From a virus: DNA of 20,012 nucleotides. The notes under the pieces are model-generated. The model was not told the origin of the DNA and ran no database searches. It worked only from the letters and a program-made list of their open reading frames with translations. The translations under genes were made by a program, and so were the position numbers. Positions 11,020 to 18,277 of the stretch are shown one piece after another; within the stretch, counting starts at the first letter, position 1; each line of letters begins with the position of its first letter. The stretch spans positions 1 through 20,012 of the IMG/VR virus record IMGVR_UViG_3300033145_002055; one strand, written 5' to 3'.

Positions 11020-11751
11020 TTATTTTAATTTTTTTCCATAATTGTAAATTTCATTTTTAGCTTTATCAGTATTTGGTTGATATAATGATTTGATTTTTTC
11101 GTATACCCAATTTTCATGCCATACGTAATCAACATTAAATTCAATCTCAACATCTAATTTACCAATACTTTCAACATCGCTAGCATATAAATCAGCAGGA
11201 TCTTTAGTTGGAAATACACCATCATAAGCTGCATAATATTCGATAGTTTTTCCATCTGGAGCGGTTGTCCAGTAATATAAAACTGCAGAATAATTTGTTT
11301 TAGTATATGCTGTAGTTCCTTCATTTTGATCACTAAGTGGTTCTCCAGCAACACCTGTTCTATAATCACGCATCATTTTAATCCATCTATGCATAATAGT
11401 AGTTACAGGTAAACCTTGCATTTCTTGAAATTTAACTGATACTGAATTACCATAGTCAAGATTACCAGGTACAGCCCATTTTACTCCACCAAGTCCAGTA
11501 AACTCAACTTTGTTTAATGTTCCACCTGGAGGTGTTACTCCAGTACATGTTGCAGCTAAAATCAATGGTGTTTCTGATTGATTTAAACCACCTGTTACTG
11601 GTTCACTATCAAATGGAATATTTGGCATTTTATCAAACCAAATAAAGTGATATCCTGTAATATATGGATCTGCAACTCCAGTAGTATGTCCGCCCCATCT
11701 TCTTGATAGAACGTTGCTTTGTACATTTGAGAAAGCATGTTTTAAACTCAT
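11020..11751 (-). CDS. Tail tube protein (gp19-like)
   Basis: The 243-residue major tube subunit forms the rigid inner tube through which DNA passes. Evidence: FIWFDKMPNIPF near residue 37; the tube-type beta strand SVSVKFQEMQGLPVTTIMHR followed by the helix WIKMMRDYRTG; and the C-terminal AAYDGVFPTKDPADLYASDV with KLDVEIEFNVDYV, which matches the 'G-x-FP-x-x-P-x-x-x-L ... I-x-F' end of T4-type tube proteins. T4 gp19 has 163 residues; the extra length lies mainly in the N-terminal third and in a loop with CTGVTPPGGTLNK. GGAGG lies eight bases before the ATG. The 226-base leader holds a late-promoter motif, a 21-base element shared with the sheath leader, and the terminator of the preceding gene. 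The sheath is two genes upstream, the usual partner. Confidence 0.9.
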   Translation of the reverse strand: MSLKHAFSNVQSNVLSRRWGGHTTGVADPYITGYHFIWFDKMPNIPFDSEPVTGGLNQSETPLILAATCTGVTPPGGTLNKVEFTGLGGVKWAVPGNLDYGNSVSVKFQEMQGLPVTTIMHRWIKMMRDYRTGVAGEPLSDQNEGTTAYTKTNYSAVLYYWTTAPDGKTIEYYAAYDGVFPTKDPADLYASDVESIGKLDVEIEFNVDYVWHENWVYEKIKSLYQPNTDKAKNEIYNYGKKLK

Positions 11752-11871: not shown

Positions 11872-11889
11872 CTTTATATTTTGTTCTAA
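11872..11889 (-). promoter_or_regulatory. Late-promoter motif, tube transcript
   Basis: The minus strand reads TTAGAACAAAATATAAAG. It differs at one base from the copy before the 225-aa gene. It lies after the terminator of the 65-aa gene and 121 bases before the tube ATG. A poorer, similar stretch, AGAACTGTATTATGAATA, follows at 11842-11859 and might be a second start. Confidence 0.65.
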
Positions 11890-11929
11890 ATATTATGTCA
11901 ACTAGTTATTTAAAAATGATAGCGGATTA

Positions 11930-11968
11930 AACTCCCTACCTGTTGATATTATCTAAAGATAGGGAGTT
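11930..11968 (-). terminator. Probable terminator after the 65-aa gene
   Basis: A perfect 9-bp stem (AACTCCCTA with TAGGGAGTT) with a 21-base loop begins nine bases after the stop. The following T-tract on the minus strand is short (TTTAAT), so termination may be partial. Confidence 0.55.
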
Positions 11969-11977
11969 AATGATAAT

Positions 11978-12175
11978 TTATTTTGACTTATCGTTTGTAA
12001 TTGAAAGAGCCCGGAAATCCTTAAGTTGATTACCTAATTGCATGCTAAGTTTTCTTGCTTGTAGTGCTTTAGTTTTACTACCACGACCGTCTTTTCCACC
12101 TTCCGCTAATTCTGAAAATGCATCAAAGGCTTCTTTTAAACTCTCAATTGATTCATCATATTCTATTAAACTCAT
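11978..12175 (-). CDS. Small basic protein in its own transcription unit, possible Hc1-like
   Basis: A 65-residue protein between sheath and tube. The N-terminal half is an acidic helix (YDESIESLKEAFDAFSELAE); the C-terminal half is basic, GSKTKALQARKLSMQLGNQL then KDFRALSI. The second half recalls the 'R-x-A-R-K-x-L-x-x-L-x-x-L-x-K-x-x-R-x-x-S' pattern of small histone-H1-like (Hc1) proteins found in bacteria and phages, which bind nucleic acid. That likeness is weak and from memory. AGGAGG precedes the ATG closely, and the gene has its own promoter motif upstream and a hairpin downstream, so it is made as a separate, probably abundant, message. It could instead be a small tail-assembly or virion protein. 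Confidence 0.8.
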   Translation of the reverse strand: MSLIEYDESIESLKEAFDAFSELAEGGKDGRGSKTKALQARKLSMQLGNQLKDFRALSITNDKSK

Positions 12176-12225
12176 AGCTTCCTCCTAAAAAAAATTAATT
12201 GATTAATTACCTATACTACTGTATG

Positions 12226-12243
12226 ATTTAATATATGTTCTTA
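12226..12243 (-). promoter_or_regulatory. Late-promoter motif, 65-aa gene
   Basis: The minus strand reads TAAGAACATATATTAAAT, in the gap between the sheath terminator and the 65-aa gene, 51 bases before its ATG. Confidence 0.62.
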
Positions 12244-12271
12244 TTAAAATACTATATCAGTGTGTATACGG

Positions 12272-12316
12272 AAAAAACAGGAAATAGAAGACTTTAACAT
12301 ATCCTATTCCCTGTTT
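12272..12316 (-). terminator. Rho-independent terminator after the sheath gene
   Basis: Six bases after the sheath stop the minus strand forms a 13-bp stem, AAACAGGGAATAG with CTATTTCCTGTTT (one G-T pair), a 16-base loop, and a T run. Confidence 0.87.
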
Positions 12317-12321
12317 GTTAA

Positions 12322-14304
12322 TTATTTAATGAAGAAATTTAAACTAATTTTTTCTGCAACTCTAGTAGGTTCTAAAGTAATATTAACATGAAAAGTTTTA
12401 GTTTTAATTTCATATGCAGTAGCACCAACCTCAACATTAAAGCTATAAAGACCTCTTCTAGATTTAATATTATCAAGGAATTGTACTATTCCACCGGCTA
12501 CTTGACTCCAAGTGATTTGATCATTTTGCTCAAATATAAAGAAACGGCAATATTGTTCAAGAGCACGTTTGCAATATAGAACAAGTCTTACAATATTCAA
12601 GTCTTGTAATGCACTTGGTTTAGCTTGAGAAGTCAATTGACCCCAGTTAGTATATCCTGGGTTGAACTTAACAATTGGATTTAATTGTTTTAAATACATT
12701 TGATCTCTTTGACCTAATCTTGGATTAAATCTAAGTTCTTTAATTGTATCAATTGAAGCTCTATTAAAACCAGCAGCAGCAAACCAAATCTCAGCTACAT
12801 TATCATTTCTTGGTAATAAATATGACATATGAAATACTGGAGAGAACCATATATCTTGTCCAGTAAATGAATCATACACTTTATTATACTCTTCATAAAT
12901 AGAACAGAAATAATTATTAAATGTATGAACATCATTACGTTTAGTAATTGAATTAGTATATGATGAGTTATCACCATTATCCATAATTGCTACACAATCA
13001 CGTCTGGTTTGAACTAATGTTGAAATACTAGTTTTAACATCAGAAGGATATCCACAATCAAATACTATTGAAAAATAAATATTTTCTTGGTCTAATAAAT
13101 CATCAACTGAACTTGAACCATCGACTGAACTAGTTAATTGACCAAGATAACCTTGAGATAATAATTGAGTAGCAACCACAGTATCTAAATCACCACTAGC
13201 AGTTAAAAGACTTCCATCACTACCTTTCTTTAATGGAACAGGTTCTGATGATGTAAAAGCTGCTGCTACTAATGCAAATGATTTTTTAATTGTATAAGTA
13301 ATTTCGCCAGTTTCATCAAACAATGAAGTATCACCAATCCAATTTCTAGCACCACTTAATATTCTATCATTATATACTTCAATGCTATCTTCATCAGCAT
13401 TCAAACCACCACACCATCCTTGAAGTTTATTACCACGTTGATCAGTAGCTTCTATACAATAAGCATAAGGAAAAGCTGTAGAAATCCAATCAGTAAAATC
13501 TTGTTTAGTATCAGTTATTGATGCTGCACCAGTAGATTTATCAACTGAAACGGTACCAATTTCTTTATCATAAACTTTAATTAATGTATCATAACCACTT
13601 GACATAATTTCATCACCATCAGTAGTCATTTCACATCTTAAAACACTTGAATAATTATTAAGAACATATTGAATCCAAATAGAATCGCCAGAGTTATCTC
13701 TAGCATTAGGATCAAATGATAATTCAAATGATTCTACTATAACTTCTGTACTATCAGCTTGTTTTTCATAAACATCAAGAACATAAATTCCGTCTAACAT
13801 TGGGTTAGCATGAGCTGTTAATCTTACACTAATACCATTATAATATTCTCCTCTACCAATTGGATAAAGAATACATAGTGGATAAGTATCTCCAACTTGA
13901 GCTAATCCTGTTCTTAATTCATAAATATTATTAATATCTGTTGAATTGATATTATTTAATGATACTGTAGCAGTAGAATCAGTTGCAGCTAACTCAACAT
14001 TAATTCTTATATTTGCATATGATGCATCATCTGGCATACATCTAATAAAGAATAATGATCCAGATTCTCCTAGATAATTATATGCACAATACATACCTTG
14101 CCCATAACTTTTTCCATATTCAGTGATATTAGGTTCACCAAATTCAGAAATAAGTTCAGCTCTTCCACCGATAAATTTTAAAACGTTGTCTTCACCTTTT
14201 TTGGTAATACCACAAATTAAACCAATTGTGCTTGGTACTGCTGCAACATAAGTGCTTAAGTCAGTGATTGTAGTATATACACCTGGTGATATTGGACTTG
14301 CCAT
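12322..14304 (-). CDS. Tail sheath protein (gp18-like)
   Basis: The 660-residue contractile sheath subunit surrounds the tube and shortens on contact to drive the tube through the cell envelope. The N-terminus MASPISPGVYTTITDLSTYV is the classic sheath start (a 'PGVY' strand that links neighbours), followed by GLICGITKKGEDN and the FGEPN/YGQG segment near 75-95. The C-terminal domain (about 490-660) has RLGQRDQMYLKQLNPIVKF, RRGLYSFNVEVGATAYE and the final VNITLEPTRVAEKISLNFFI, which matches the conserved C-terminal sheath domain that makes the interlocking mesh. T4 gp18 has 659 residues. AAGGAGG precedes the ATG. Its 118-base leader has the 21-base element shared with the tube but no clear copy of the late-promoter motif, so it may be read from the promoter of the 225-aa gene. 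A strong terminator follows. Confidence 0.95.
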   Translation of the reverse strand: MASPISPGVYTTITDLSTYVAAVPSTIGLICGITKKGEDNVLKFIGGRAELISEFGEPNITEYGKSYGQGMYCAYNYLGESGSLFFIRCMPDDASYANIRINVELAATDSTATVSLNNINSTDINNIYELRTGLAQVGDTYPLCILYPIGRGEYYNGISVRLTAHANPMLDGIYVLDVYEKQADSTEVIVESFELSFDPNARDNSGDSIWIQYVLNNYSSVLRCEMTTDGDEIMSSGYDTLIKVYDKEIGTVSVDKSTGAASITDTKQDFTDWISTAFPYAYCIEATDQRGNKLQGWCGGLNADEDSIEVYNDRILSGARNWIGDTSLFDETGEITYTIKKSFALVAAAFTSSEPVPLKKGSDGSLLTASGDLDTVVATQLLSQGYLGQLTSSVDGSSSVDDLLDQENIYFSIVFDCGYPSDVKTSISTLVQTRRDCVAIMDNGDNSSYTNSITKRNDVHTFNNYFCSIYEEYNKVYDSFTGQDIWFSPVFHMSYLLPRNDNVAEIWFAAAGFNRASIDTIKELRFNPRLGQRDQMYLKQLNPIVKFNPGYTNWGQLTSQAKPSALQDLNIVRLVLYCKRALEQYCRFFIFEQNDQITWSQVAGGIVQFLDNIKSRRGLYSFNVEVGATAYEIKTKTFHVNITLEPTRVAEKISLNFFIK

Positions 14305-14368
14305 AATGTTTCCTCCTTATAACGGATTCTTATTAAATTGTCTGTTTGTCTTTTTTCCGCTCTACATA

Positions 14369-14389
14369 AGTTTGAAAATCCTTTTTGGA
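14369..14389 (-). promoter_or_regulatory. Leader element shared with the tube gene (sheath copy)
   Basis: Second copy of the element at 11781-11801, one mismatch in 21 bases. It lies 65-85 bases before the sheath ATG, just after the end of the 225-aa gene. Confidence 0.6.
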
Positions 14390-14422
14390 GGTATCTCTAA
14401 GTTAACCTTCATAATTTTTTTA

Positions 14423-15100
14423 CTAGCAATATAAATACCAATAAAATACTAATTGTCTAGTATCATCTTTTACAATACTAGGAAATGTAACTATACTAAA
14501 TATGTGCCATGGACCAGTTGATCCACCAACATCACTATCAGAAGTATATAAACCAGCTTCATTTAAATTATAACCATTGGCATGATCTACTGATATTGTT
14601 GTAGTAACTTTTAATATTAGCCATTTATCATCGTTTAAAATATCCTGTTGAAATTCTATTGTATCAAAAGGATGTTTGTAATATTGTCCGTTTCTTAAAT
14701 CTGAACAACTTGAATCAGTTGGATGTAAAGGAATTTCACTTGCTAAACCTGTTATTGTGTTTACAGGTACATTTGGATTTAATGGATCTCCAACTGGAGT
14801 TCCTCCATTTCCTAATCCAAACCAATTAAGAAATTCATCCTCATCCGGAGCGATGTTTGGATTTTTGATATTACATAATCTAGATGCTATCCATTCACGA
14901 CCAACATATAGAACTAAGTTACTTTTACCAACCTTTTGTTTAGTTCCATCTTTATCAACAGAATAAATTTCAACATAACCTTCTGGTTTTCTTGATTTCG
15001 CAGTCGTACTATTCACTGAATCTTGTATGCACGCTTCACCATAGTTTTCATCTATATTGACCACTATAGTTTCTGGATCTTTAATCTTTTTATCATCCAT
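14423..15100 (-). CDS. Virion-associated protein of unknown function, upstream of the sheath
   Basis: A 225-residue acidic protein with an unstructured N-terminal 40 residues, then beta-rich sequence. WFGLGNGGTPVGDPLNPN at about 93-110, a LASEIPLHPTD block, and NLNEAGLYTSDSD near 180 stand out. The 'N-E-A-G-L-Y' turn followed by 'F-S-I-V-x-F-x-x-I-x-K' and an aromatic FYWYLY end is a pattern I know from beta-rich phage tail, fibre and neck proteins of large phages, but I cannot give a precise family. AAGGAG precedes the ATG and a late-promoter motif lies 40 bases upstream. No terminator separates it from the sheath gene, so both are probably on one message. It ends in TAG. Confidence 0.8.
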   Translation of the reverse strand: MDDKKIKDPETIVVNIDENYGEACIQDSVNSTTAKSRKPEGYVEIYSVDKDGTKQKVGKSNLVLYVGREWIASRLCNIKNPNIAPDEDEFLNWFGLGNGGTPVGDPLNPNVPVNTITGLASEIPLHPTDSSCSDLRNGQYYKHPFDTIEFQQDILNDDKWLILKVTTTISVDHANGYNLNEAGLYTSDSDVGGSTGPWHIFSIVTFPSIVKDDTRQLVFYWYLYC

Positions 15101-15139
15101 TATGTAACTCCTTTTATAATCTTTGCGATTCTACTTTAG

Positions 15140-15157
15140 CTTTATATTTTGTTCTTA
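15140..15157 (-). promoter_or_regulatory. Late-promoter motif, 225-aa gene and sheath transcript
   Basis: The minus strand reads TAAGAACAAAATATAAAG, 17 of 18 identical to the tube copy, 40 bases before the ATG in the divergent gap that separates minus-strand late genes from the plus-strand cassette. Confidence 0.65.
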
Positions 15158-15190
15158 TTTCTGGATATGATTGGTGACTTTTATAAAAAC

Positions 15191-15221
15191 TTGAACTATA
15201 TATATTAATATACAATATAAC
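15191..15221 (+). promoter_or_regulatory. Possible promoter of the plus-strand cassette
   Basis: TTGAAC at 15191 and TATAAC at 15216 lie in a very AT-rich gap, 34-64 bases before the first ATG. The 19-base spacing is long for sigma-70. GAAC followed by AT-rich bases also partly recalls the late motif. Weak evidence in AT-rich DNA. Confidence 0.3.
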
Positions 15222-15254
15222 ATAATTGTAATTTTAATTTAATAGGAGAGGTGA

Positions 15255-16265
15255 ATGAAACTATCAATTTTTAATCAAGGTTCTAAAAGAATCTCATTAG
15301 AAAAATTATTTTCTAATAAAATAATGAAAAAGAAAAAGAAAAATAAAAAAAAATTAATACTTGATCATATATCTAAAATTGATAATGAGCCATTTACTCC
15401 AAATGATGTAAAAAAAGTATTTAATGGATATATAGAATTAGATATGATACATACTTATCTTTCTAGGTTATGTGTTAATGGTGTCTTAATAAGACTTAGC
15501 AAAGGATTATATATTAAAGGTAATATTTCAGTTGAATCTATAACATCAAAACAATTGATAGAAACTCCAAATAATAGATGGGAAGATAAAAATGGACCAA
15601 ATAAAATTTTTATAACTGATCTTCAGTATAAGAAAGTTTCTAGATATTTTAATGGAAACTCAATGATTTTATGTGGACCAAATGTTGATCTCAGAATAAG
15701 ACAAGCTGAATGTATAACAAATGGTAATCATGATTTATATTTAGTTGATAATAATTCAGATATTTTTGATCTAATTAAAACTAAAATAAAAAACTCTGGA
15801 AATAAAAATGTTAAACCTATTTTTAAGAATATTTATGATATTAATATTCATCCTCAGTTTCAAGACTTAGATTTTTGTAATACATTGGTATACAAAAATA
15901 AAAAAGATAATAAATATTTAGAAACAGGTGAAATTTTAGCATATAGATTAATAAAACAAAAAGAGCAAGGTTATCCAATAGCAGCAATGAATTTTACTTT
16001 TTGTGGTAGAAGGTTTAAAAGAAAAATTATTGTTAGACAAATAAATAGTATTTTACATATTTTAAATTCTGCAATAACTGGATTTGACTATAACGTTAAA
16101 GGTTGTTCTAAAGGTGTAAAAATAATTCCTGATTCTAATCAAAGTTTTGGATATTATCATATACCAAATTGGATAAACAAAGGTAAAATTTTAGAATTTG
16201 ATTTCTATACTTATTCTGATACACAAAATCAAATGATTACTTGCTTGATAATTTATAAATTATAA
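15255..16265 (+). CDS. Winged-helix protein with possible methyltransferase-like C-terminal domain
   Basis: A 336-residue basic protein, probably cytoplasmic. A poly-Lys run (25-33) precedes a winged-helix-like region (about 34-90): LDHISKIDNEPFTPNDVKKV, then IHTYLSRLCVNGVLIRLSKG and LYIKG, the 'L-x-x-L-x-x-x-G-x-L-x-R-x-x-x-G-x-Y' pattern of DNA-binding wHTH domains such as those in AbiEi-type and phage regulators. From about 135 to the end there is an alpha/beta region with LYLVDNNSDI, a central FQDLDFCNTL (202-211) and a final MITCLIIYKL strand. The D-L-D-F-C motif and order recall degenerate class I methyltransferase-like domains; no clear glycine-rich SAM loop is visible, so activity is doubtful. 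AGGAGAGG precedes the ATG. The ParB-like gene follows on the same message. Confidence 0.8.
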   Translation: MKLSIFNQGSKRISLEKLFSNKIMKKKKKNKKKLILDHISKIDNEPFTPNDVKKVFNGYIELDMIHTYLSRLCVNGVLIRLSKGLYIKGNISVESITSKQLIETPNNRWEDKNGPNKIFITDLQYKKVSRYFNGNSMILCGPNVDLRIRQAECITNGNHDLYLVDNNSDIFDLIKTKIKNSGNKNVKPIFKNIYDINIHPQFQDLDFCNTLVYKNKKDNKYLETGEILAYRLIKQKEQGYPIAAMNFTFCGRRFKRKIIVRQINSILHILNSAITGFDYNVKGCSKGVKIIPDSNQSFGYYHIPNWINKGKILEFDFYTYSDTQNQMITCLIIYKL

Positions 16266-16269
16266 TAAT

Positions 16270-16274
16270 GGAGG
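16270..16274 (+). promoter_or_regulatory. Ribosome binding site that fixes the start of the ParB-like gene
   Basis: GGAGG lies eight bases before the ATG at 16283. The frame also has an ATG at 16268, but that codon is part of this Shine-Dalgarno sequence and has none of its own. Confidence 0.8.
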
Positions 16275-16282
16275 ATTTTTTA

Positions 16283-17320
16283 ATGTTAGACAATGCAATA
16301 ATTGAAAAAAATAAAAACCACGTGGCTACACCTACAACTGTAAAAAAAGAATCAAAATTAGAAGCAATTGTAATTGAACCATTAAATGGAAAATTTGTTA
16401 CAATTGATTATAATGAAGAATTCAATGCAAAAGGAGTGAGATTAGTAGCAATTCATTTTAATATGCCTATAGAATTAATAAACTTTTGTTCTGCATATCA
16501 AAGAGCTTTAGAAGATGGGAGACTTAAAACATTAATAAAGTCTTATGCTGAAAATGGTGTGTGGCAATCTTTAACTGCAACTATTAATACTTCTAAAAAT
16601 CCTGTTGATGGAAATCATAGAATTACATGTTTAATTGCAATTGGACATAAAACAATACCGATTGTACATGAATTTGAATTCACAACTGCAGAAGCAGAAG
16701 TAGATTTCTTCTTAGAAATAAATAAAATGGGAACTCAGATTAAAGCACCACAATACGTATGGCGAGCTAAATACTTGGCAAAGCATGTTGCAGGATTGCT
16801 TTTTTATAAATTAACAGATGAAGATGAATTATCTTTTTTGTTTGATAAAGTTTCTATTGCGGAAAGACCATCGACTTTAAAAAGAATTCCTATCAATTCT
16901 GCGTGGCAATTAATTGCAAAATGTGGTTTAGGATACAGTAAAGGGTGGAGAAATGATGAAGAAGAAATATATAATGCAAAGATTAAAGAAATTGGATATG
17001 AAATTGTTCTGAATAGAATTAATGAATTTCTAATATTTTTCAATAATTGTTTTGGACCAAAAGAAAGAGGTTCTATATGTTGGAAAGCAAAAACATTCAA
17101 AGCATTTATACATTTATTTATACTTTTGAAAAAGAATAATCTGTTAAATACAACTTCAAAATATAAAAGAACAGTCCAAAGAATTTCTAAATTCAATATA
17201 GATGAAAACCTTGCTAAAATGGAATTTGGATCTCTTATGACTTGTCTTATTGATAAGTATAATATTAAGAAGAAAGAACATAATAGAATTCTTATCACAA
17301 ATCCTTTTATAAGAGAATAA
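16283..17320 (+). CDS. ParB / DGQHR-like nuclease-fold protein
   Basis: A 345-residue protein. The signature is at about 71-150: AYQRALEDGRLKTLIKSYAE, a helix that ends before a strand, then NPVDGNHRITCLIAIGHKTI with the D-G-N-H-R motif at 109-113, and TTAEAEVDFFLEINKMGT. This order (Y-Q-R, basic helix, strand, D-G-x-H-R, aliphatic strand, 'E-x-x-x-x-F-x-x-x-N') is that of the ParB-N/Srx fold, found in partition proteins, ParB-type nucleases and DndB-like DGQHR proteins. The C-terminal half (155-345) is helical and basic with no motif I recognise. Such proteins act on DNA, by binding or cutting, usually with NTP; which applies here cannot be seen. It is the second gene of a two-gene unit that runs against the flanking late genes and ends at a strong hairpin. 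Confidence 0.82.
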   Translation: MLDNAIIEKNKNHVATPTTVKKESKLEAIVIEPLNGKFVTIDYNEEFNAKGVRLVAIHFNMPIELINFCSAYQRALEDGRLKTLIKSYAENGVWQSLTATINTSKNPVDGNHRITCLIAIGHKTIPIVHEFEFTTAEAEVDFFLEINKMGTQIKAPQYVWRAKYLAKHVAGLLFYKLTDEDELSFLFDKVSIAERPSTLKRIPINSAWQLIAKCGLGYSKGWRNDEEEIYNAKIKEIGYEIVLNRINEFLIFFNNCFGPKERGSICWKAKTFKAFIHLFILLKKNNLLNTTSKYKRTVQRISKFNIDENLAKMEFGSLMTCLIDKYNIKKKEHNRILITNPFIRE

Positions 17321-17324
17321 ACAG

Positions 17325-17363
17325 AAAAATGAGGGACTCAACTTAATTGCTGAGTCCCTCATT
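17325..17363 (-). terminator. Terminator at a convergent junction
   Basis: A perfect 13-bp stem (AATGAGGGACTCA with TGAGTCCCTCATT) and a 10-base loop lie between the ends of the ParB-like gene and the zinc-ribbon gene. The T run follows the stem on the minus strand (TTTTT); on the plus strand the T-rich stretch begins only about eight bases later. It serves the minus gene well and may also stop plus transcription. Confidence 0.88.
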
Positions 17364-17392
17364 AGTCCATCTTTTATTTTTTTGTTTATTTT

Positions 17393-18196
17393 TTATGCTT
17401 GTAGATTTGTCCCACACTCAGGACAAAATTTAGTTCCATATCTTGATTTAGTTCCACAAGTAGGACATTCTTTTTTAGTTGATACAAATAGAGGAGTCTT
17501 TACAGGTTCATCTATCTTATCAGTACCTTTAAGTCTAATAATAATTGTTCCATGATCTTCAATAGTTCCTACATAGGTACTATTAAAATCTTGTTTTAGT
17601 TCAGAACCAGGAACTGTTATACCCTCTTCTATCTGAGGTGCTTCACTTGGTCCAAGACTATCCATAGTAACATTACTTGAAATATTAGCAGATGCCATTG
17701 GATCAGATTGTCCTACAATGCTTCTAACTGCATTCATATCATTACTACATCCACCATATTTTACTTCATGGTTACTATATACATTAGTAGTATCAAAACT
17801 TCTATATACTGTTGGATATGTCCATGTAGTAGTAGATGATAATTGTCTTTCAAAACCAAATTTAACACGGATGAAACCATCATCTATTTTATCTCCACGA
17901 TGATCTTGAATTTTTTTTGTTTTTTGAATGAATTTAAAAGCATTCTTGACTGCATTATTAACCATGACACCTTTTAACTCAGTATCATCATTGGCGTCAA
18001 TAACAAGTCTTCTTCCATCCAATACATCAGTTCCATCAATAGAAACTTCTGCAACCGCTCTTCTATTATCAAGATTTTTTAATAGGATAGAATACTCTGC
18101 TCCGAAAGGAAGGATGACATCATTCTCATTTGATACTTCTCTAAGAATTTTACCATTACATTTGATCACTGCTACGAAATTATTGTTATATACCAT
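17393..18196 (-). CDS. Virion-type protein with C-terminal zinc ribbon
   Basis: A 267-residue protein with two parts. The first (about 1-117) is beta-rich: FVAVIKCNGKILREVS, LKNLDNRRAVAEVSIDGTDV, DGRRLVIDAND, then FKFIQKTKKIQDHRG and DDGFIRVKFGFE. I associate this 'N-R-R-A-x-x-x-V-S-I-D-G ... D-G-x-I-R-V-x-F' pattern with conserved virion or surface-associated proteins of large phages. The middle (120-235) is Ser/Thr/Asn-rich and probably flexible. The end is a classical zinc ribbon, CPTCGTKSRYGTKFCPECG, with Cys 244, 247, 258 and 261. A zinc ribbon on such a protein is unusual and suggests a nucleic-acid or protein contact. AGGAG precedes the ATG; a promoter motif and a possible leader hairpin lie upstream, and a strong terminator follows, so it is a separate unit. 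Confidence 0.82.
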   Translation of the reverse strand: MVYNNNFVAVIKCNGKILREVSNENDVILPFGAEYSILLKNLDNRRAVAEVSIDGTDVLDGRRLVIDANDDTELKGVMVNNAVKNAFKFIQKTKKIQDHRGDKIDDGFIRVKFGFERQLSSTTTWTYPTVYRSFDTTNVYSNHEVKYGGCSNDMNAVRSIVGQSDPMASANISSNVTMDSLGPSEAPQIEEGITVPGSELKQDFNSTYVGTIEDHGTIIIRLKGTDKIDEPVKTPLFVSTKKECPTCGTKSRYGTKFCPECGTNLQA

Positions 18197-18213
18197 TTTT
18201 ATCTCCTAAGCAT

Positions 18214-18244
18214 ACAGACTAGATGCTTTATGTTTAAAGTCTGT
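18214..18244 (-). other. Possible leader hairpin of the zinc-ribbon gene
   Basis: ACAGACT and AGTCTGT can pair across 17 bases, 18 bases before the ATG. A second small stem, CTTTA with TAAAG, overlaps it, so two folds compete. It lies between promoter motif and ribosome site and might tune translation or stability. No T run follows, so it is not a terminator. Confidence 0.35.
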
Positions 18245-18259
18245 GGATTAAGATGGACT

Positions 18260-18277
18260 ATTTATAATATGTTCTAA
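18260..18277 (-). promoter_or_regulatory. Late-promoter motif, zinc-ribbon gene
   Basis: The minus strand reads TTAGAACATATTATAAAT, followed by A, so it contains a full TATAAATA, the T4 late-promoter element. Its TAG is the stop codon of the preceding gene. It lies 64 bases before the ATG. Confidence 0.65.

What the first reader, a model, noticed from the sequence alone, without database searches (positions are those of the whole stretch)
11872..18277. An 18-base late-promoter motif, TWAGAACAWAWWWTAAAK, in four leaders
Copies at 11872-11889, 12226-12243, 15140-15157 and 18260-18277 (all minus strand) match the consensus fully, and the first and third differ by one base. All sit 40-121 bases before a start codon, two directly after a terminator. 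The right half resembles the T4 late element TATAAATA, but the fixed AGAACA part is not in the T4 element. This suggests a late promoter read by a phage-encoded or phage-modified polymerase with its own upstream contact.
Basis: partly seen in the sequence, partly recalled or inferred. Interest (0 to 1): 0.72.

Follow-up and report, generated by a model that had tools for sequence, protein, structure and literature searches.

The report
Late promoter of jumbo-phage RNA polymerase
The repeated 18-letter sequence is very probably the "on switch" for late genes of an uncultured giant phage whose relatives carry their own cell-like RNA polymerases, and it is a variant of the switch known from Bacillus phage AR9, apparently in a lineage without AR9's uracil-sensing residue.

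Summary
In detail: four exact copies, all on the minus strand, in four leaders; none arose in 300 simulated windows. In related viral contigs the motif is strongly enriched in leaders and keeps its place before orthologous genes. Relatives encode two multisubunit RNA polymerases with unsplit beta/beta' and a sigma-like subunit that folds like AR9 gp226 (Z 20; next unrelated 5.1). AR9's late promoter is AACA-(6N)-T[A/G]+1. In that register the motif reads [A/G]G-AACA-(6N)-[A/T]-A+1-A, which puts the start inside TAAA, not after it. A separate early-type element, CTATATATATTAAT, lies back to back with late copy 3. So a phage-encoded polymerase is supported; the T4 comparison is not. New: strict T-1 is lost; a G precedes AACA; AR9's uracil-sensing Val206 is absent from 34 of 34 homologues (33 Phe/Tyr, 1 Ser; 24 of them came from a scan that favours Phe/Tyr). 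AACA-N6-T[A/G] is also enriched in phiR1-37 leaders. Transcript starts, DNA base and host remain untested.

The parts
11872..11889 (-). late promoter copy 1 (TTAGAACAAAATATAAAG); predicted +1 at 11874; drives 11020-11751
   Evidence: exact match; present in 10 of 10 orthologous leaders whose protein is at least 65% identical, 19 of 45 over all
12226..12243 (-). late promoter copy 2 (TAAGAACATATATTAAAT); predicted +1 at 12228; drives 11978-12175
   Evidence: present in 11 of 13 orthologous leaders
15140..15157 (-). late promoter copy 3 (TAAGAACAAAATATAAAG); predicted +1 at 15142; drives 14423-15100 and, by inference, the tail sheath 12322-14304
   Evidence: present in 65 of 71 orthologous leaders
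18260..18277 (-). late promoter copy 4 (TTAGAACATATTATAAAT); predicted +1 at 18262; overlaps the stop codon of the upstream frame; drives 17393-18196
   Evidence: present in 8 of 8 orthologous leaders whose protein is at least 63% identical, 26 of 46 over all
15196..15209 (+). early-type promoter element CTATATATATTAAT, divergent from late copy 3, 45 nt before the plus-strand gene at 15255
   Evidence: pieces of the word are found de novo in leaders of relatives; resembles the AR9 early promoter AAATATATATTAT
12258..12318 (-). terminator-like hairpin with T run between the sheath gene and late copy 2
   Evidence: -17.6 kcal/mol, z -4.4
11915..11980 (-). hairpin between gene 11978-12175 and late copy 1
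   Evidence: -17.5 kcal/mol, z -4.6
11020..11751 (-). virion structural protein gene behind late copy 1
   Evidence: PHROG 21400 'virion structural protein', E 1.7e-12
11978..12175 (-). 65-aa gene of unknown function behind late copy 2
12322..14304 (-). contractile tail sheath gene, downstream of 14423-15100
   Evidence: PHROG tail sheath E 3.1e-68; sheaths of BpSp, LPJP1, phiR1-37, PBS1 and AR9 lead the hit list
14423..15100 (-). virion structural protein gene behind late copy 3
   Evidence: PHROG 19418, E 1e-11
17393..18196 (-). gene with a C-terminal zinc ribbon behind late copy 4
   Evidence: Pfam Zn_ribbon_3 E 9.5e-5, below that family's curated cut-off

Best explanation
The motif is the late promoter of a jumbo phage of the AR9/phiKZ-like, two-RNA-polymerase type. 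Early in infection a virion-borne polymerase reads CTATATATATTAAT promoters. These make, among other things, a sigma-like subunit (a distant homologue of AR9 gp226 and phiKZ gp68) and a non-virion polymerase. That holoenzyme then reads [A/G]G-AACA-(6N)-[A/T]-A+1-A before virion and other late genes, and probably also upstream of the virion polymerase genes, so that the enzyme can be packaged. AACA lies at -11 to -8 and transcription starts on the second A of TAAA. Shown by computation: enrichment, placement, conservation, two promoter-like classes, presence of two polymerases and of the sigma-like fold in relatives. Inferred: that this enzyme reads this motif, the +1 position, the timing of both classes, and that the window's own phage, a 20-kb fragment without polymerase genes, carries the same machinery as its collinear relative G001.
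For: Window and G001 (207 kb) are collinear: 16 of the 18 window proteins compared have homologues at G001 75.9-100.4 kb. Degenerate motif in sense leaders: 4 of 4 occurrences in the window, 25 of 31 G001, 9 of 10 G002, 5 of 7 G003, 21 of 29 G036, 30 of 40 G037, where intergenic DNA is 4-8% of the sequence; expected in intergenic DNA 0.02-0.17. Words of the motif are among the top de novo words in leaders. Of 12 G001 genes scanned behind it, 5 match virion families (head, major head, tail, two virion structural), 1 a homing endonuclease, 6 nothing informative. G002 and G003 encode two full sets of unsplit beta and beta', G001 one full set, a second beta and part of a second beta' near the contig start; in the beta' N-part tree one set groups with the virion enzyme of AR9/phiR1-37/LPJP1 (93/93) and the other lies on the non-virion side. 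The sigma-like subunit matches the gp226 family by profile (hhalign E 1.4e-6 and 4.1e-6, probability 90 and 87) and by fold (7s01_A Z 20.0 over 403 residues, Foldseek 6.9e-5; phiKZ gp68 chains Z 8.4-8.8; next unrelated 5.1). 10 of 28 sigma-like genes have TATATATATTA within 260 nt upstream, 0 of 28 a late motif there; 12 of 28 have a late motif within 700 nt downstream, directly before the virion-type beta' in G002 and before a small gene of 89-197 aa in the other 11. Register: in 148 [A/G]GAACA leader sites with no condition downstream, -1 is A .72/T .23, +1 A .85/G .09, +2 A .81; published AR9 late promoter AACA-(6N)-TA/G.
Against: No transcript data. The window has no polymerase or sigma-like gene, and no sigma-like gene was found on G001's contig. 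AR9's strict T-1 is not kept. In 9 of 26 further contigs of the group the strict pattern is not above its reversed control (for example G041 1 v 1, G049 4 v 5, G057 0 v 1), so the motif has drifted in deeper branches or these records are too incomplete. The sigma-like gene was found in only 6 of 48 further contigs that carry a related beta' (42 of them shorter than 100 kb, so mostly fragments). Its homology to gp226 is remote: tblastn against 50,697 phage records and a profile search of five AR9-type genomes at E up to 10 found no gp226. The C-part beta' tree does not resolve the virion/non-virion split and warns of long branches. The fold model's pTM is only 0.56 and the whole-chain rmsd is large (16.7 A), as between differently placed domains.
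Confidence: 0.88

Rival explanations
1. Host sigma-70/sigma-A promoters whose -10 is TATAAA and whose AGAACA is incidental spacer.
For: Copy 1 alone also reads TTGACA-17-TATAAA, a full -35 match at the right spacing.
Against: Across 148 sites the best -35 match averages 2.56 of 6, against 2.51-2.81 at four control offsets; the other three window copies score 2 of 6. A sigma-70 promoter needs no fixed AGAACA.
Confidence: 0.04
2. T4-type late promoter: host RNAP redirected by a phage gp55-like sigma to TATAAATA.
For: Copy 4 contains TATAAATA; copies 1 and 3 contain TATAAA.
Against: 1 of 4 window copies only; the base after TAAA is free and most of the conserved information lies in GAACA; relatives encode their own polymerases and a gp226-like sigma. 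A gp55 homologue was not searched for.
Confidence: 0.02
3. A motif in RNA (5' leader element or processing site) or a packaging/replication site, not a promoter.
For: It lies in leaders, 18-99 nt (first to ninth decile) before start codons.
Against: Same core, spacing and purine start as the mapped AR9 promoter; two copies follow hairpins where a fresh start is needed; early-type and late elements meet back to back at 15140-15209.
Confidence: 0.05

Closest known systems
AR9/PBS1 late promoter, AACA-(6N)-T[A/G]+1 (PMC5312081, passages seen; PMC9209446, passages seen)
   Same: AACA core, 6-nt spacer, purine +1, virion genes downstream, a second early class of AT-rich promoters, non-virion multisubunit polymerase and a gp226-fold subunit (in relatives).
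   Different: T-1 is mostly A; conserved [A/G]G in front of AACA; AT-rich spacer with A at -6 in .84; A at +2; weak upstream signal near -32 to -29; beta and beta' not split; gp226 Val206 replaced by Phe/Tyr in 33 and Ser in 1 of 34 homologues.
phiKZ late promoter TATG (PMC7598289, passages seen)
   Same: Phage with two multisubunit polymerases; gp68 shares the C-terminal fold.
   Different: The published phiKZ consensus is TATG without an AACA element.
mReC, multi-subunit RNAP-encoding Caudovirales (PMC7481178, passages seen)
   Same: Metagenomic phages with beta and beta' genes; contig IMGVR_UViG_3300017989_000062 of this group comes from the metagenome of the paper's mReC1 and mReC3.
   Different: 'promoter' has 0 occurrences in that paper's main text; identity of contigs was not established.
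T4 late promoter TATAAATA (recalled)
   Same: AT-rich right half.
   Different: Conserved GAACA part, unconstrained right flank, different polymerase.

Membership tests
AR9-type late promoter | AACA at -11 to -8 | tested here: met
   4 of 4 window copies; logo columns 2-5; the position relative to a start is by register, not mapped
AR9-type late promoter | 6-nt spacer, then T-1 | tested here: not met
   -1 is A .72, T .23 in 148 sites; all four window copies have A in that register. In AR9, BpSp, LPJP1, S6 and phiR1-37 the k=6 spacer peak is clear
AR9-type late promoter | purine at +1 | tested here: met
   that position is A .85, G .09; the start itself is not mapped
AR9-type late promoter | read by a non-virion polymerase with a gp226-type subunit | tested here: inconclusive
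   both present in relatives, not in this 20-kb fragment; binding not tested
AR9-type late promoter | template-strand uracils at -11/-10, sensed by gp226 Val206 | tested here: inconclusive
   Val in 0 of 34 homologues, Val in 7 of 7 AR9-type proteins; the DNA base cannot be read from sequence
AR9-type late promoter | drives late virion genes | tested here: met
   placement before virion genes; timing not measured
T4 late promoter | TATAAATA at -10 | tested here: not met
   1 of 4 copies; right flank free
T4 late promoter | gp55/gp33 present | not tested
   no search made
sigma-70 promoter | TTGACA-like -35 at 16-18 nt | tested here: not met
   mean 2.56 of 6, controls 2.51-2.81; met in copy 1 only
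mReC phages | phage-encoded beta and beta' RNA polymerase | tested here: inconclusive
   in relatives G001, G002, G003; window too short; same contigs as the paper not shown

The most novel reading that the evidence does not exclude
The AACA-(6N) late promoter code is older than, and independent of, uracil DNA. In this lineage with unsplit polymerases a gp226 homologue with Phe/Tyr (once Ser) in place of the uracil-sensing Val206 reads the same core in thymine DNA, with compensation from the added G-12 (and A-13) and perhaps an upstream contact near -30. AR9's uracil requirement would then be a later refinement.
Probability: 0.4. Interest if true: 0.75.

Novelty: new variant of a known kind. 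Interest (0 to 1): 0.62.

Why it matters
It gives a readable late-promoter code, and an early-type one, for a large uncultured group of jumbo phages, so their temporal programme can be proposed from sequence alone. It shows one promoter core kept across polymerases whose subunits are about 22-33% identical over the aligned parts, although the sensing residue has changed. That makes the open question of how AR9-type enzymes came to tell uracil from thymine directly testable. It also supplies a candidate late promoter for phiR1-37 (67 leader sites against 14.7 expected; 58 against 12.4 with shorter leaders), whose RNA-seq paper reports no new conserved sequences upstream of putative new starts.

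Tried and rejected
Tried: exact AGAACA-N5-TAAA in AR9, phiR1-37, BpSp, LPJP1 and S6 gives 3, 1, 3, 2 and 4 matches against 2, 1, 10, 1 and 5 for the reversed control, so the extended form is specific to the window's group. I first read the motif as one base shorter than AR9's; the logo chosen only by [A/G]GAACA (and the EM logo) showed that the AR9 register holds and T-1 is relaxed. Upstream CYRA-like element: clear among orthologous leaders, but with one site per downstream-protein cluster (35 clusters) only 0.33 bit at -16 and 0.18 at -19 against a maximum of 0.13 over 24 positions further upstream; kept as tentative. EM runs on AR9, phiR1-37 and the early seeds drifted to ribosome-binding or early motifs and were not used. 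The first fold model (4 sequences, pLDDT 61) gave gp226 as top hit only weakly (E 0.19); the second replaced it. Host: the sheath has no relative in genome contigs; the beta' query returned a capped list of 80 loci at 28-32% identity in bacterial genomes, which look like cellular rpoC and say nothing of the host. DNA base: ThyX in 0 of 9 records; thymidylate-synthase family in 1 of 9 and 4 of 16; dUTPase in 2 of 9 contigs of this group and 0 of 5 AR9-type phages; suggestive at most.

Bias found on checking: the scan that brought most sigma-like genes used a pattern that itself holds Phe/Tyr at the Val206 place, and my script required Asp-x-x-Met-Trp, so '28 of 28 Phe/Tyr' was partly built in. 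Four of the 28 also came from a scan without that pattern, and a profile search of 48 contigs chosen by their beta' gene gave 6 new homologues: 5 Phe/Tyr, 1 Ser. Free of that bias: 9 of 10 Phe/Tyr, 1 Ser, no Val. I left the odds of the novel case as they were.

Gene calls in the scripts are my own simple caller, so intergenic fractions are approximate; some 'coding' motif copies (for example at G001 position 44) may be miscalls. Sites within 45 nt of a contig end or with a repeated 30-base context were dropped. The orthologue count used a looser pattern (any base at four spacer positions) within 320 nt and had no chance control of its own; its printout shows at most 40 rows for each copy.
Full report
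OBSERVATION. The four copies are exact and lie at the stated places, all on the minus strand. No other place in the window comes within two mismatches, and 300 Markov simulations of the window gave none. Each copy lies in the leader of a minus-strand gene, its 15-base core ending 40, 51, 64 or 121 nt before the start codon. The 12226 and 11872 copies follow strong hairpins.

WHAT THE WINDOW IS. The record is a 20,012-base IMG/VR contig and the window is all of it. It carries a contractile-tail module: sheath, baseplate wedge, hub and virion proteins. The best sheath matches among 2,285 phage records are BpSp, LPJP1, phiR1-37, PBS1 and AR9, at 26-29% identity over 78-87% of the query; PaBG and phiXF1 follow at 72%. 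In viral contigs 177 stretches encode a relative and the best 80 were kept, the first at 91%. The 207-kb contig G001 is collinear with the window: 16 of the 18 window proteins compared have homologues there, the exceptions being the two plus-strand genes 15255-16265 and 16268-17320.

IS THE MOTIF MORE THAN CHANCE ELSEWHERE? WAGAACANNNNNTAAA matched in 11 of 11 related contigs, 64 times against 13 for the reversed pattern. In 26 further contigs it matched in 24, 146 times against 48; in 9 of the 26 it was not above the control. By my gene calls, occurrences of [A/G]GAACAWAWWWWWAW that lie in intergenic DNA within 300 nt before a sense start are 4 of 4 (window), 25 of 31 (G001), 9 of 10 (G002), 5 of 7 (G003), 21 of 29 (G036) and 30 of 40 (G037), with 0.02-0.17 expected in intergenic DNA; in AR9, phiR1-37 and LPJP1 the same form gives 1 of 3, 0 of 1 and 0 of 2. 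Of 150 distinct AGAACA-N5-TAAA sites in the window and the relatives fetched by then, 120 are intergenic, median 37 nt before a start for 119 of them. Orthologous leaders keep the motif: 65 of 71 for copy 3, 11 of 13 for copy 2, 19 of 45 for copy 1, 26 of 46 for copy 4; in the closest orthologues (protein identity at least 65% for copy 1, 63% for copy 4) it is 10 of 10 and 8 of 8.

TWO PROMOTER-LIKE CLASSES. Word enrichment in leaders of G001, G002 and G003 returned, besides ribosome-binding words, pieces of the late motif and of CTATATATATTAAT. The latter resembles AR9's early promoter AAATATATATTAT. It occurs once in the window, at 15196-15209 on the plus strand, 45 nt before the gene at 15255 and divergent from late copy 3. 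Of 12 G001 genes scanned behind a late motif, five match virion families (virion structural protein twice, tail, head, major head), one a homing endonuclease and six nothing informative. Of eight genes scanned behind early-type words (seven in G001, one in G002), one matches a helicase family, one (about 900 nt from its word) a phosphoesterase, and six nothing; one of the eight has a late motif as well. So the early class rests on sequence likeness and placement, not on gene function.

THE MACHINERY. G002 and G003 each hold two sets of RNA polymerase genes, with beta' and beta as single frames of about 900-1000 and 1000-1380 residues, rather than split in two as in AR9; G001 has one full set, a second beta and part of a second beta' near the contig start. 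In the beta' N-part tree one set joins the virion enzymes (93/93) and the other stays on the non-virion side; the C-part tree does not resolve this. A 483-residue protein next to the virion-type set in G002 and G003 hits a gp226 profile (E 1.7e-5 and 1e-6). Profile-profile comparison of 22 homologues with 7 gp226 proteins gives E 4.1e-6, probability 87, over 106 columns of the sigma2-like part. Simpler searches miss the link: tblastn of the phage records and a profile search of five AR9-type genomes found no gp226. The AlphaFold model (pLDDT 82, pTM 0.56) finds AR9 gp226 (7s01_A, Foldseek 6.9e-5; VIA-align Z 20.0, 403 residues, rmsd 16.7) and phiKZ gp68 (Z 8.4-8.8, 163-167 residues, rmsd about 4); the next match has Z 5.1. 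10 of 28 of these genes have TATATATATTA within 260 nt upstream, none a late motif there, and 12 of 28 have a late motif within 700 nt downstream. In G002 that motif lies directly before the virion-type beta'; in the other 11 it lies before a small gene of 89-197 aa, and in L160 and L163, for example, such a small gene stands just before beta'. Several of the 28 are near-copies. This fits an early-made sigma-like subunit and a late-made virion polymerase. In AR9 too an early promoter is annotated before g226.

REGISTER AND MECHANISM. AR9's late promoter is AACA-(6N)-TA/G with the last base as start (PMC5312081, passages), and its enzyme reads template uracils at -11 and -10 (PMC9209446, passages; PMC7598289, passages). 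In 148 leader sites chosen only by [A/G]GAACA, the AR9 -1 position is A .72/T .23, +1 is A .85/G .09, +2 is A .81, and -6 is A .84. So the same register holds with a relaxed -1 base. A weak upstream signal lies 16-19 nt before the hexamer, about -32 to -29; AR9 is reported to have no sequence conservation at -35.

A WIDER POINT. In leaders of AR9, BpSp, LPJP1, S6 and phiR1-37, AACA-Nk-T[A/G] peaks at k=6 among k=2-10 (z 16.8, 17.0, 10.0, 5.0, 15.3). The next base differs by lineage: G .79 in phiR1-37, T .83 in LPJP1, T .91 in S6. The phiR1-37 transcriptome paper reports no new conserved sequences upstream of putative new starts (PMC4848604, abstract and passages). On late promoters of this metagenomic group I saw no paper in the listings of searches (10 of 100 listed) and 114 of an open-licence library; a 2026 jumbo-phage review has no mention of mReC (PMC13282480, passages).

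URACIL. Val206 of gp226, which excludes thymine, is Val in 7 of 7 AR9-type proteins. In 34 homologues here it is Phe or Tyr 33 times and Ser once, beside a conserved Asp and Trp. 24 of the 34 came only from a scan whose pattern favours Phe/Tyr; of the 10 free of that bias 9 are Phe/Tyr and 1 Ser. Together with dUTPase in 2 of 9 contigs of this group and 0 of 5 AR9-type phages this suggests, but does not show, that these phages use thymine DNA and another way to sense the core.

VERDICT. Very probably a real late promoter, a new variant of the AR9 kind.

Noticed in passing
window 15255-17320 (+) and G001 92133-94595 (+): The same early-type promoter slot inside the late block carries different genes: two of 336 and 350 aa in the window, an 820-aa helicase-like gene in G001. 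It looks like a swappable cassette.
   Followed up: partly
L130-L143 (phiR1-37), L391-L404 (S6), L405-L417 (BpSp), L144-L155 (LPJP1): AACA-N6-T[A/G] is enriched in leaders at that spacing, with a lineage-specific next base; in phiR1-37 AACA-N6-TAG.
   Followed up: partly
L092:5291-11122, L161:7484-13449, L115: The multisubunit RNA polymerases of this group have unsplit beta and beta' genes, unlike AR9.
   Followed up: partly
orthologues of window 17393-18196, for example L019, L023, L040, L057, L071: An early-type element in the opposite direction directly abuts the late motif (TTAATATATATAG or a near form next to AGAACA).
   Followed up: no
window 11872-11907 (-): Late copy 1 overlaps a full TTGACA-17-TATAAA sigma-70-like arrangement; the other copies do not.
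   Followed up: yes
G037:C1:142576-142968 (L385): A dUTPase gene with a late motif just upstream (142420) in one contig of the group.
   Followed up: no
L422 (G047:C1:53747-55147): The one sigma-like homologue with Ser at the Val206 place; its contig has 4 strict motif matches against 3 for the control.
   Followed up: no
window 16268-17320 (+): 350-aa protein with a GNHR motif that recalls ParB-type domains (from memory; Pfam gave no match).
   Followed up: no
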